A DNA stretch of 64,000 bases, from NCBI GenBank assembly GCA_963971535.1, contig OZ020592.1, positions 54,443,150 to 54,507,149 of the forward strand, given 5' to 3'. The DNA is from Notolepis coatsorum. Taxonomy: Eukaryota; Chordata; Actinopteri; Aulopiformes; Paralepididae. Positions 27,335 through 30,503 of the stretch are shown here, piece by piece. Numbering within the stretch: the first letter of the stretch is position 1; each line of letters starts with the position of its first letter. A program made the translations under genes and the position numbers. A model generated the notes under the pieces. The model saw only the letters and a list, made by a program, of their open reading frames with translations. It searched no databases and was not told the origin of the DNA.

Positions 27335-27890
27335 AGACCAACAGTTTCACACATTGTTTCATTAATTGTACACATTGTTCCACAAACACACTCTTCAGCA
27401 CATAGTCCTGGTGATACCGAGCGGGTAGCCGACCTCTGGTGCTCCTCTGGGGCCGGGTTCGCTCAACCCCCCTCGCGTCTGACTCCGTGTCAGATTTGTC
27501 CGTCCCTGCTGGCTTCGCCCTCCGAGGCCTCTGAGGGGCCGCCAGCGGCGCCCTCCTCGCCCCTGTCTCCGCCGTCTTCGCCGTCCTCGTCGTCCTCTCC
27601 TGAGGGGACCAACTCTACCTCTCCTCCCTCGTTCGGCGCTGCTTCAGCGACGACCCGCGGGGCCCTGGGTGGGTTACACGCCTTAGGGTGCGGTTCTCGA
27701 GGGTAAACGAAGGCACCCCCCACGTCTGATTCGGATGAGCTCCGCGATCTCATCGGGATCCTTCGGGGAGCCCTCATCCGCTCTTCCGGGTTGGAGGCCG
27801 GGAAGGAGCAGATCTGGCTCCGATCTCTATGCACAGTCTTTTCGGGGCCCCCACTTTCGGGACGAACCATGAACACTGACGTCCCCTTGA
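27335..27890 (-). pseudogene. Element E integrase C-terminal tail, out of frame
   Basis: In a frame different from the protease/YBX1 frame, codons 27876-27490 contain VRPESGGPEKTVHRDR, which resembles the end of the integrase C-terminal domain of vertebrate Ty3/Gypsy or retrovirus-like elements. A long acidic tail follows (SGEDDEDGEDGGDRGEEG). In a third frame the end reads RPQRSTRGRLPARYHQDYVL, the kind of basic tail that closes such polyproteins. So the 3' end of pol survives, but at least two frame changes separate it from upstream coding sequence. It marks the right-hand limit of the region replaced by the YBX1-like segment. Confidence 0.55.
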
Positions 27891-29399
27891 CGTTTCAATC
27901 GCGGCTCTCTGGGCCCTTGGTTTGCCGCCCTGGTCTGGACCTCTCTGGTAGTCCTCAGGGTATGCTCCATCGCGGGGTGGGCCCCTCCTGCGGGGATAGT
28001 ACCTGTAGCGGTTCCGGTCAGCGGCGTTCTTGCTCCCCGGGATGGGAACGCCTGCTGGGCCGGTGACGTTGGCCGCCTCCGCTCCCTTCTCCCCTTCAAC
28101 CACATCAAACTCCACAGTTTCTCCATACCCCACGCTGCGAAGGTATCTCCTTGGGTCGTCCTTCCTGATGGCCGTCTGGTGTACAAACACGTCCTCCTTC
28201 GTGTCATTCATGTGTATGAAACCATATCTGTTTCTGACGTTGAACCATCTGACCGTCCCCAAGATTTTGGTTGCGATGACCTTCTTGTCCGCCGAGAACA
28301 CTTCGGCGGCCGGGCTGGACGGGCTCCCCGCGTCCTCAGCGGTCTGCCGTGGTTGATGCGTTTCGGCGGCCTTGCTGCCGCCTCCGAGCTCTCTGCTTTC
28401 CTCTCTCCGCTCCCGTTGCCGATCTAACGGAGTCTTAGAGGGCTGGATCCCACGGGTCACCGCCCGCCACACTGGTTCCAGCTCGGGCCCGTCCGCCTGA
28501 AGCCGCCGCAACTCCGCCCAGTCGTACCCGCGGTTCCTCTTCTGGGTCACCATTCGTCCTGTGACGACTGCCGAGTACGGGATGGGGGCCGTGACTGTTA
28601 AGAAGCTCTTCTCGGTGTCCTCCACCTCCGGTTCTGGTCTCCTCGACGTGCACGACAAGGCGTCGGCCTTCCAGCTGAACCGGCCGGGTTTGTAATGGAC
28701 CACAACAACGTGGCTAAGGGCGACATCCTCGGAGTCGGGGCGATGACTACGGGCTGGTCGCATCCCCTTGATCCCGTTGAAAAGACCGTCCACTCCGCAG
28801 AGCACATTCATCCCCAGAAGTCCCTGGACGGGGTCTCTCGCGAGTCCTCGGAGGGGGTCGTCCTTCACGATGAATATACACTTCTCTGCGAACGTCATCT
28901 CCAAGCACTTCACCTCCGCGTACAGGCACCCCACCACGGGGATCTCCAAACTGTTGGCGGCCGTGAGGGTGATCCAGTTGGCGGAGGTCAGCTGCTGCTT
29001 TGGGAAGTTTTGCTTGAAGTGGCTTTCTGACACAGTCGTCACCTCGGCTCCGGTGTCGACCAGGCAGCGGGTGTCCACAACATCTATTTGTACATCTAGG
29101 ATGAAGCATTCCCTGTGTACCTTCTGCTCCTCTGGGCTCTTGGCGACTGGGTCGACGGCGCTCATCGCGACGGCGTCGATCGCCCTTCGCGGTCCAGGTC
29201 GGAACCCCGACGGGCCCGGCGCTTCGGGAGCAGGGGAAGGGGCGAGGCGTGGCCCACCGGCGGGGCAGGGGCAATCTCTGGCGATATGGCCCGGCTGTTG
29301 GCAGGTGTAGCATATCAACCTCCCGTCCTCATTTCGCCTGGGCATTCCACGCGGGGCCGCGGGCACATCTCTCCTAGGTCGCCGTCCGGCGGCGCCTCT
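27774..29399 (-). CDS. Element E protease fused to a captured YBX1-like cold-shock domain
   Basis: An open frame follows the gag UAG (29402-29400) in the same phase and ends at 27774. Counting from 29366: zinc knuckle C19-C22-H27-C32 (CYTCQQPGHIARDC); aspartic protease with VDTGAEVT (DTG at 104-106) to about 200; residues 217-243 resemble the end of RNase H (YKPGRFSWKADALS); a linker runs to about 330. Residues about 332-480 (roughly 28375-27925) then match the host Y-box protein YBX1: N-terminal Ala/Pro-rich part, the cold-shock domain (KKVIATKILGTVRWFNVRN; KEDVFVHQTAIR; GETVEFDVVEGEKGAEAANV) and the start of the basic tail (YYPRRRGPP). The segment lacks the introns that split the domain in vertebrate ybx1, so it came through mRNA. 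RNP2 (VFVHQTAI) is kept; RNP1 has Arg (R380) where YBX proteins have Gly. Function as RNA-binding packaging or chaperone factor is speculation. Confidence 0.85.
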   Translation of the reverse strand, partial: RGAAGRRPRRDVPAAPRGMPRRNEDGRLICYTCQQPGHIARDCPCPAGGPRLAPSPAPEAPGPSGFRPGPRRAIDAVAMSAVDPVAKSPEEQKVHRECFILDVQIDVVDTRCLVDTGAEVTTVSESHFKQNFPKQQLTSANWITLTAANSLEIPVVGCLYAEVKCLEMTFAEKCIFIVKDDPLRGLARDPVQGLLGMNVLCGVDGLFNGIKGMRPARSHRPDSEDVALSHVVVVHYKPGRFSWKADALSCTSRRPEPEVEDTEKSFLTVTAPIPYSAVVTGRMVTQKRNRGYDWAELRRLQADGPELEPVWRAVTRGIQPSKTPLDRQRERREESRELGGGSKAAETHQPRQTAEDAGSPSSPAAEVFSADKKVIATKILGTVRWFNVRNRYGFIHMNDTKEDVFVHQTAIRKDDPRRYLRSVGYGETVEFDVVEGEKGAEAANVTGPAGVPIPGSKNAADRNRYRYYPRRRGPPRDGAYPEDYQRGPDQGGKPRAQRAAIETSRGRQCSWFVPKVGAPKRLCIEIGARSAPSRPPTRKSG

Positions 29400-30503
29400 C
29401 TAGGGCGCATCTCGCTCCTGTTGCAATGCCTGGAAGAGCTGTTCCTGGCGCGCGCCTAACCGCTCTTGGCCTGCGAACAGCTGTCGGATCAACTCTTGGA
29501 GTGTGTCGGCGAGAGGAGGGGTTTTGCGTCCCTCTGCAGCGGCGGCGTGGATCATCCCCCGGGCGGGACCCTTCGTGGGGGGCAGGACCATCTCTTCCTC
29601 GGACCAGTTTATCGCCTCCATCATCAGGTCGATAAACGTCCGTCCCCCGTCCTCTCTCACGTGCCTCCTCATCTCCTGTCTCAGCATCTCGTCCCTCAGG
29701 CCGAGCACAAACTGCTCCCGCAGCCGGGCTGCAGGATCGGGGACCTGTCCGGGGTCTCTGCCCTGAATGCGCCGCATCCGCTCCTGTAGGTCGTACGCGA
29801 ACTCCCGCACGGTCTCACCGTCTGATTGCCGGCGGTCGAGGAACTCTCCCAGGCGGACACTGACTGGGGTCTTGTCTCCGTACGTCTCCTGCAGCAAGCG
29901 AAACAGGGCGTCTGGCTCTGGGGCGGTTCCTTCCAGGACGAAGCGCACCATCCGCCTAGCCTCGCCCTTTAAGTGCTGCTGTACGAACTCCGCCTGTTTG
30001 TCGCCGGGCACTCTGCTGATCCGGAAATGGGCCTTCATTTCCCGGATCCAGTCCTCCACCGGCGACTCCCCTCTCTCTCTTCCCCCTCCAAACTCGCTGC
30101 ATTTTCGGTCCCGCTGGACATACACGGTCGGCGAGGGGGGCGGGCGGGATTCACGGCCCTCCCTGTCGAGGGTGGCTTGGGTCCTTTCCAGGGCCAGCGC
30201 CTGTCGGTCCAGGAGGCCTGCTTGCCGGTGGGCTTTGTCCGCCAGGGCCTTCACCTGTGCGGTCAATTCCTCCATGGTCTCAGCCCCCTCCTTCTTCACT
30301 TCGGTGGCGGCGTCTTGGCCGTCTCGTTGCTCCCGTAGAGCCGCCTGCGAGTACCGCTTCTCTTGGAGTGCCTGCTCGGTCAACTCCTTCACTGTGTCGG
30401 CCCCCTGCTTTATGAGTGCCGCCTGCGTCCGATACTTCTCCTGCAGCTCCTCGAACTTCACCGCCATCTCCTGTGCGGCGTGGGTCCCTTCTTCAGACGT
30501 CAT
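29400..30503 (-). CDS. Element E Gag
   Basis: Structural Gag protein, 367 codons from the ATG at 30503 (the frame is open upstream to 30566, but that part overlaps the primer site and starts without ATG). The N-terminal 110 residues are a charged coiled coil (KFEELQEKYRTQAALIKQG and following). The capsid-like region carries PVEDWIREMKAHFR, FVQQHLKGEARRMVRFVL, LFRLLQETYGDKTPVSVRLG and FAYDLQERMRRIQG, resembling the Gag of Ty3/Gypsy elements related to the PNMA/ZCCHC gene families. It lacks a zinc knuckle, which lies after the stop. The stop is UAG (29402-29400) followed by AGAGGC, and the downstream frame is in the same phase, which fits read-through expression of Gag-Pro as in gammaretroviruses. 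Confidence 0.8.
   Translation of the reverse strand: MTSEEGTHAAQEMAVKFEELQEKYRTQAALIKQGADTVKELTEQALQEKRYSQAALREQRDGQDAATEVKKEGAETMEELTAQVKALADKAHRQAGLLDRQALALERTQATLDREGRESRPPPSPTVYVQRDRKCSEFGGGRERGESPVEDWIREMKAHFRISRVPGDKQAEFVQQHLKGEARRMVRFVLEGTAPEPDALFRLLQETYGDKTPVSVRLGEFLDRRQSDGETVREFAYDLQERMRRIQGRDPGQVPDPAARLREQFVLGLRDEMLRQEMRRHVREDGGRTFIDLMMEAINWSEEEMVLPPTKGPARGMIHAAAAEGRKTPPLADTLQELIRQLFAGQERLGARQEQLFQALQQERDAP

What the first reader, a model, noticed from the sequence alone, without database searches (positions are those of the whole stretch)
27774..30503. LTR retrotransposon carrying a captured host YBX1 cold-shock domain in frame with its protease
Seen: between a protease/RNase-H-end remnant and an integrase-tail remnant lies an uninterrupted, intronless segment (about 28375-27925, minus) with the Y-box cold-shock domain, RNP2 VFVHQTAI, and flanking parts on both sides of the domain. 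Known: vertebrate ybx1 has introns within this region, and retroviruses can capture host mRNA, usually losing pol. Inference: this element acquired a ybx1 cDNA by copy-choice and now needs helper enzymes. A nucleic-acid-binding domain attached to Gag-Pro could aid RNA packaging or chaperoning. I know of no described retrotransposon with a Y-box domain, but I could not search.
Basis: partly seen in the sequence, partly recalled or inferred. Interest (0 to 1): 0.93.

Follow-up and report, generated by a model that had tools for sequence, protein, structure and literature searches.

The report
Jumping element carrying a Y-box gene
A mobile DNA element in what is likely a fish genome carries, in one unbroken reading frame with its own zinc-knuckle and protease-like parts, an intron-free piece of the host gene ybx1 that includes its RNA-binding cold-shock domain; it was likely copied in from the gene's messenger RNA, and whether it does anything for the element is untested.

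Summary
On the minus strand a 7.2-kb LTR retrotransposon (5' LTR 32328-30568, 3' LTR 27255-25122; TG...CA ends, 4-bp target-site duplication CATG, LTRs 98.4% identical) has only 3.3 kb inside: a gag frame ending in UAG and a 541-codon open frame with zinc knuckle, protease-like stretch, two pol-remnant-like motifs (by eye), then YBX1 from codon 2 through the cold-shock domain (28376-27906). No RT, RNase H or integrase domain was found in the frames scanned. The YBX1 piece is intronless, has the 5' coding end, and lacks the mRNA 3' end and poly(A): unlike a LINE-made pseudogene, like LTR template-switch capture. It differs at 19 of 111 positions invariant in fish YBX1, about 7 times more than one LTR's own divergence allows, so capture probably predates this insertion. 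Evidence for selection is weak. The own-genome search for other copies did not complete (11 tries). None of the 120 listed protein hits covered more than 30% of the frame. Host-gene capture by LTR elements is a known kind (maize Bs1, crocodile ERVs); I found no report of a Y-box cargo. A role as extra nucleocapsid module is plausible but unshown.

The parts
30568..32328 (-). 5' LTR (1,761 nt), TG...CA ends
25122..27255 (-). 3' LTR (2,134 nt, including a 351-nt extra stretch)
   Evidence: 28 mismatches in 1,761 aligned
32329..32332 (.). target-site duplication CATG, upstream copy
25118..25121 (.). target-site duplication CATG, downstream copy
30548..30565 (-). primer-binding-site-like stretch starting TGG, 2 nt after the 5' LTR
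   Evidence: sequence; tRNA match not tested
27256..27269 (-). polypurine tract (one T inside) next to the 3' LTR
   Evidence: sequence
29400..30503 (-). gag frame, 367 aa then UAG; capsid part weakly PNMA-like
   Evidence: PNMA E 0.0016, below cut-off; relatives P0121 52%, P0122 46% identity
27774..29399 (-). open frame of 541 codons following the gag UAG: zinc knuckle, protease-like, remnants, YBX1-derived part, 43-codon tail
29268..29312 (-). CCHC zinc knuckle
   Evidence: zf-CCHC E 5.3e-8, residues 30-44
28782..29117 (-). aspartic-protease-like stretch (LVDTGAE)
   Evidence: RVP E 0.0012 (below curated cut-off); no PDB sequence match at E<=10 for 28788-29129
28653..28697 (-). RNase-H-end-like motif HYKPGRFSWKADALS
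   Evidence: by eye; one search gives no Pfam match
27906..28376 (-). captured YBX1 segment: A/P N-terminus from codon 2, cold-shock domain, start of C-terminal domain, then an internal skip to RGPDQGGKP
28059..28259 (-). cold-shock domain (Pfam PF00313)
27808..27885 (-). integrase-tail-like stretch in a different frame from the YBX1 part
   Evidence: by eye; no Pfam match

Best explanation
This is a 7.2-kb LTR retrotransposon, likely of the Ty3/Gypsy type, whose second reading frame joins a zinc knuckle and a protease-like stretch, without a stop, to an intronless piece of ybx1 that includes the whole cold-shock domain; it likely arose when reverse transcriptase switched from the element's RNA to a co-packaged, spliced ybx1 mRNA and back, and it would need enzymes from intact relatives to move. 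Shown: the LTR architecture and TSD, the open frame, the YBX1 identity from codon 2 through the cold-shock domain, the lack of introns, of poly(A) and of the mRNA 3' end, and no enzyme domain in the frames scanned. Inferred: capture by template switching; capture older than this insertion (amino-acid changes at invariant sites exceed the LTR clock about sevenfold), hence at least one round of copying as a chimera; helper dependence. Weakest: that the encoded domain is made (the frame lies behind a UAG) and serves as a second RNA-binding module beside the zinc knuckle, helping RNA packaging or chaperoning, as host YB-1 is reported to act on several retroviruses.
For: LTRs 1,761 and 2,134 nt, 28 mismatches in 1,761 aligned, TG...CA, TSD CATG. 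Frame and domains. Gap-free alignment from YBX1 codon 2 to about position 144 of the piece, then GPDQG.KP, found in 82 of 120 fetched YBX1-like proteins; in the 65 rows where both anchors were found the skip is 50-84 residues. No A-run of 7 or more in the 3,312-nt internal region. Human YB-1 exons 1, 2 and 3 cover matching parts (primers in passages of PMC4130533; placed by me). 19 of 111 fish-invariant positions changed, none of the 19 residues shared by any of 115 YBX1-like proteins; about 7 times the per-copy LTR divergence, Poisson P 7e-11, and P 3e-6 even against the full LTR-to-LTR divergence. 11 of 13 RNA-contact residues kept, including W65, F74, F85, H87 (12 of the list from passages of PMC7226217, E121 recalled). 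YB-1 is reported as a cofactor of HIV and as regulating MLV vector and MMTV production in an RNA-dependent way (passages of PMC6040738).
Against: One copy only. No protein joining these element parts to a cold-shock domain among the 120 listed hits; no relative of the frame in viral contigs or prokaryote genome contigs, collections in which fish DNA is hardly expected. Signals of selection are weak: chance of no stop under neutrality 0.36, of no frame-breaking indel 0.04-0.29 depending on the indel rate, conservative changes P 0.08. The domain core (10 of 74 changed) is not significantly better kept than the flanks (9 of 37; Fisher P 0.18), and contact residues (2 of 13) no better than the other core positions (8 of 61, no test made). 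K64R and D105Y hit contact residues, and the RNP1 glycine became arginine. The UAG before this frame has no unusually stable structure after it (z -0.8), and gag relative P0122 runs on into a zinc knuckle without a stop, so the UAG may be a defect of this copy. The AlphaFold model of the YBX1 part is poor (mean pLDDT 53).
Confidence: 0.7

Rival explanations
1. Passenger capture: the chimera formed by template switching, but the YBX1 piece is inert ballast; its frame is open by luck and this copy is a dead or nearly dead end. (This shares the origin of the best explanation and denies only the function.)
For: Single copy seen; weak selection signals; UAG before the frame; no dN/dS possible. [quoted passage not shown]
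Against: Divergence from host YBX1 beyond the LTR clock implies copying after capture with the frame kept; 11 of 13 contact residues kept.
Confidence: 0.5
2. A LINE-made processed ybx1 pseudogene landed inside an older LTR element.
For: An 8-bp repeat CAGAGAGC lies at both junctions, as a TSD would; LINE-like sequence (by look) flanks the element.
Against: 60 of 500 shuffles give a shared word that long. No poly(A), no YBX1 C-terminus; the 5' coding end is present, the reverse of LINE truncation. An insertion would not by itself remove RT and integrase.
Confidence: 0.1
3. Capture was recent, from a transcribed, already diverged ybx1 retro-pseudogene or paralogue rather than from ybx1 mRNA; or LTR gene conversion made an old insertion look young.
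For: Either would also explain the mismatch between YBX1 divergence and LTR divergence.
Against: A neutrally drifting donor would have had roughly a 1-10% chance of staying open (product of the figures). LTR mismatches are spread evenly (3, 7, 6, 4, 4, 4 per 300 nt), with no converted tract in sight, though conversion of the whole LTR is not excluded.
Confidence: 0.2

Closest known systems
Maize Bs1 retroelement
   Same: [quoted passage not shown] that it lost pol is recalled).
   Different: Plant element and other cargo; here a vertebrate RNA-binding domain follows zinc knuckle and protease-like stretch.
Crocodilian endogenous retroviruses with captured KIT-ligand and nectin3 (PMC4299795, abstract and passages)
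   Same: Vertebrate LTR elements with captured host mRNA, copied further (six nectin3 insertions named).
   Different: Host frame added, or replacing env, in several copies with purifying selection reported; here one copy, fused in frame behind knuckle and protease-like stretch, selection not shown.
LTR-mediated retrocopies of metazoans (Tan et al. 2016, seen only as cited in PMC5408686; the paper itself is not held)
   Same: Template switching between LTR-element RNA and cellular mRNA, reported in zebrafish among others.
   Different: Here the element keeps its gag, zinc knuckle and protease-like stretch, in frame with the cargo; whether that holds for those retrocopies I could not read.
Acutely transforming retroviruses (Gag-onc fusions; recalled, no call)
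   Same: Host coding sequence fused in frame behind Gag at the cost of pol; helper needed.
   Different: No oncogene; the cargo derives from an RNA-binding protein; an env frame was not specially looked for.
Fish Y-box-binding protein 1 (host gene; 6a6j zebrafish YB-1)
   Same: Colinear from codon 2 through the cold-shock domain; 67 of 78 core residues equal the fish majority.
   Different: 19 private changes at invariant positions, a 50-84-residue skip, no C-terminus, element sequence on both sides.

Membership tests
LTR retrotransposon (any) | Paired direct LTRs with TG...CA ends and short TSD | tested here: met
LTR retrotransposon (any) | PBS after the 5' LTR and PPT before the 3' LTR | tested here: inconclusive
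   both present by eye; the PBS was not matched to a tRNA
Ty3/Gypsy (Metaviridae) | Gag with zinc knuckle and aspartic protease | tested here: inconclusive
   zf-CCHC above cut-off, RVP 19.6 bits just below 20.7
Ty3/Gypsy (Metaviridae) | PR-RT-RNaseH-IN order and RT phylogeny | not testable with these tools
   no RT, RNase H or IN domain in the frames scanned; the reading as Ty3/Gypsy rests on motif look and a weak PNMA match
LTR-element host-gene transduction | Intronless host coding sequence internal to the LTRs | tested here: met
   exon anchors from passages of PMC4130533
LTR-element host-gene transduction | Loss of element enzymes | tested here: met
   none in gag, ORF2 or the 27493-27894 piece; gag and ORF2 fill 2,730 of the 3,312 interior nt, the rest was not scanned by profile
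LTR-element host-gene transduction | Several insertions sharing the same junctions | not testable with these tools
   The genome search 'own' unanswered 11 times
LINE-made processed pseudogene | 3' end of the mRNA and poly(A) tail | tested here: not met
LINE-made processed pseudogene | TSD around the inserted cDNA | tested here: inconclusive
   8-bp repeat, reached by 60 of 500 shuffles
YBX1 (rather than YBX2/YBX3) | Groups with YBX1 in a tree | not tested
   no tree made; most named hits listed are called YBX1 (at least one, P0070, 'Y-box binding protein-2'), and the A/P N-terminus aligns without gaps

The most novel reading that the evidence does not exclude
A fish LTR-retrotransposon lineage has taken over its host's Y-box cold-shock domain as a second nucleocapsid module, fused behind its own zinc knuckle and protease, and has kept it through repeated transposition: an element that carries its own copy of a host cofactor that retroviruses otherwise borrow.
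Probability: 0.2. Interest if true: 0.8.

Novelty: new member of a known kind. Interest (0 to 1): 0.5.

Why it matters
Host-gene capture by LTR elements usually costs the element its own genes. Here the captured domain is of a kind that retroviruses use from the cell (YB-1 is reported as a cofactor of HIV and as regulating MLV vector and MMTV production; PMC6040738, passages), and it sits in frame beside the element's own zinc knuckle. If copies exist with a conserved domain, one could ask directly whether an RNA chaperone gained by capture improves packaging of a non-autonomous element, and see a nucleocapsid being rebuilt from a host protein.

Tried and rejected
Own-genome search for PF00313 (genome search, where 'own') was tried 11 times and never answered. 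Protein search scored on residues 1-366 alone gave nothing at E<=0.001 among 7,990 candidates; with the gag capsid part it gave two unnamed proteins among 1,242 candidates; this tool needs shared exact 5-residue words. Viral contigs: no relative of the frame, of YBX1 or of gag. Prokaryote genome contigs: none. Phage records: 28, all below 60% identity; the 20 listed match only the cold-shock part. Protease stretch against PDB: no match. Structure after the gag UAG: not above shuffles. AlphaFold models of gag (mean pLDDT 46) and of the YBX1 part (53) were too poor to use, so no fold search was made. RNA-contact residues are not visibly better kept than the rest (2 of 13 against 8 of 61; no test made). 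dN/dS was not possible: no host ybx1 DNA could be fetched. The other Ty3-like element of the window gave no tblastn match to this frame beyond chance.
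Full report
What is there. The finding lies inside an LTR retrotransposon on the minus strand. Two direct repeats, 1,761 nt (32328-30568) and 2,134 nt (27255-25122), align with 28 mismatches in 1,761 positions and four gaps (9, 11, 351 and 2 nt); they begin TGTAG and end CTACA and are flanked by the 4-bp duplication CATG. A stretch starting TGG follows the 5' LTR after two bases and a polypurine tract precedes the 3' LTR. 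The flanks look like the 3' part of one LINE: RT-like frames, by look only, end just upstream and an ATT-repeat tail follows downstream, so the whole element seems to have inserted as a unit.

The inside is 3,312 nt. A 367-aa gag frame ends in UAG at 29400; the next frame, in the same register, is open for 541 codons to 27774. Pfam finds a zinc knuckle (E 5.3e-8), a protease-like stretch just below cut-off and a cold-shock domain (E 1.5e-21), and on gag a sub-threshold PNMA match; no RT, RNase H or integrase domain appears in the two frames or in the two remnant pieces (0 families at E<=10). The integrase-tail-like stretch is in another frame from the YBX1 part.

What the cold-shock part is. 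Residues 371-462 match zebrafish YB-1 (PDB 6a6j) at E 4.7e-47. In the protein search 1,009 proteins passed; the 120 listed all carry PF00313 and none covers more than 30% of the frame. The 889 not listed were not seen. So no listed protein (the tool admits about 297-947 aa) joins these element parts to a cold-shock domain. Against the 120 fetched proteins, mostly named fish YBX1, the element aligns from codon 2, without gaps through the A/P N-terminus and the cold-shock domain into the C-terminal domain, best with P0002, an unnamed metagenome protein. It then jumps 50-84 residues (65 rows measured) to GPDQG.KP, present in 82 of 120, and ends. That the window is from a fish is inferred from this; no call names the organism. 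The host gene has introns across this stretch: PMC4130533 (passages) gives primers in human YB-1 exons 1, 2, 3 and 5, which I place at the A/P start, NVRNGYGFI, DTKEDVFVH and MRRPYG; PMC3771576 (passages) speaks of exons 2-4 and 5 in zebrafish. The element runs through the exon 1-3 part without an intron.

How it got there. The piece has the 5' coding end, no 3' end and no poly(A) (no A-run of 7 or more in the interior), the reverse of LINE-made pseudogenes, and it sits where most of pol should be. That is what template switching within a virus-like particle predicts; PMC5408686 (passages) describes this route for LTR retrocopies. An 8-bp repeat at the two junctions is within chance (60 of 500 shuffles).

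How old. I aligned 115 of the 120 proteins (five dropped for length or N-terminus) with the element. Over the first 144 positions (the rest, past the skip, aligns uncertainly) 111 are invariant (>=98%) and the element differs at 19: 10 of 74 in the core and 9 of 37 in the flanks. None of the 19 residues occurs in any of the 115. Even counting one base change each, that is 0.057 per nt against 0.008 per LTR copy, a ratio of 7.2, Poisson P 7e-11; for the core alone 5.7, P 1.6e-5. Against the full LTR-to-LTR divergence the P values are 3e-6 and 0.0035. So the capture is probably older than this insertion and the chimera was copied at least once. LTR gene conversion or a pseudogene donor are the ways out; LTR mismatches are spread evenly.

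Does it do anything? Weak evidence. Under random change to the same number of altered invariant residues, no stop would arise in 36% of 2,000 runs; no frame-breaking indel in 4% with the LTRs' own indel rate or 29% with a lower, assumed one; the changes are conservative only at P 0.08. The core is not significantly better kept than the flanks (Fisher P 0.18). Of 13 RNA-contact residues (12 named in passages of PMC7226217; E121 recalled) 11 are kept, including W65, F74, F85 and H87; K64 is R and D105 is Y, and the RNP1 glycine G71 is R. Contact residues changed at 2 of 13, other core positions at 8 of 61. The frame lies behind a UAG with no special structure after it, while the gag relative P0122 continues into a knuckle without a stop. 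[quoted passage not shown]

What is known. Crocodilian ERVs captured KIT-ligand and nectin3, with purifying selection reported (PMC4299795, abstract and passages); maize Bs1 and metazoan LTR retrocopies are known (PMC5408686, passages). I found no report of a Y-box or cold-shock cargo in an open-access library: of ten searches, four joined Y-box or cold-shock words with retroelement words, four were on gene capture or on YB-1 in retroviruses and two on YBX1 itself; all were judged from listings. One search listed all 9 papers holding both 'LTR retrotransposon' and 'cold shock domain', none of them on such an element by title and abstract start. Subscription papers and preprints were not searched.

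Verdict. It is a new example of a known kind, with an unusually suggestive cargo. Copy number and selection, which decide whether it is more than a passenger, could not be tested because the own-genome search did not complete.

Noticed in passing
25391-25741: The extra 351 nt in the 3' LTR look like a 343-bp hAT-type non-autonomous element (type recalled): 8-bp duplication GTCACCGG and inverted ends CAGTGGTG...CACCACTG.
   Followed up: partly
50984-52592: A diverged LTR of the same or a related family (69-76% identity in pieces); no tblastn match of gag or ORF2 beside it beyond chance.
   Followed up: partly
14950-23986 and 55677-62429: Two further, related LTR elements with LTR pairs 99.6% and 99.8% identical and long frames, probably BEL/Pao-like by look; young and perhaps active.
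   Followed up: no
8101-12111: Another Ty3-like element with RT and RNase H (RVT_1 E 8.7e-36) and a chromodomain-like end by look, broken by stops and frame changes.
   Followed up: no
P0121, P0122: The gag capsid part has only two relatives at E<=0.01 among 1,242 candidates scored (about 216-688 aa), both from unnamed assemblies, so this gag family seems rare in annotated proteins.
   Followed up: partly
24827-24985: 53-copy AAT/ATT repeat beyond the 3' flank, like the tail of the LINE the element seems to sit in.
   Followed up: no
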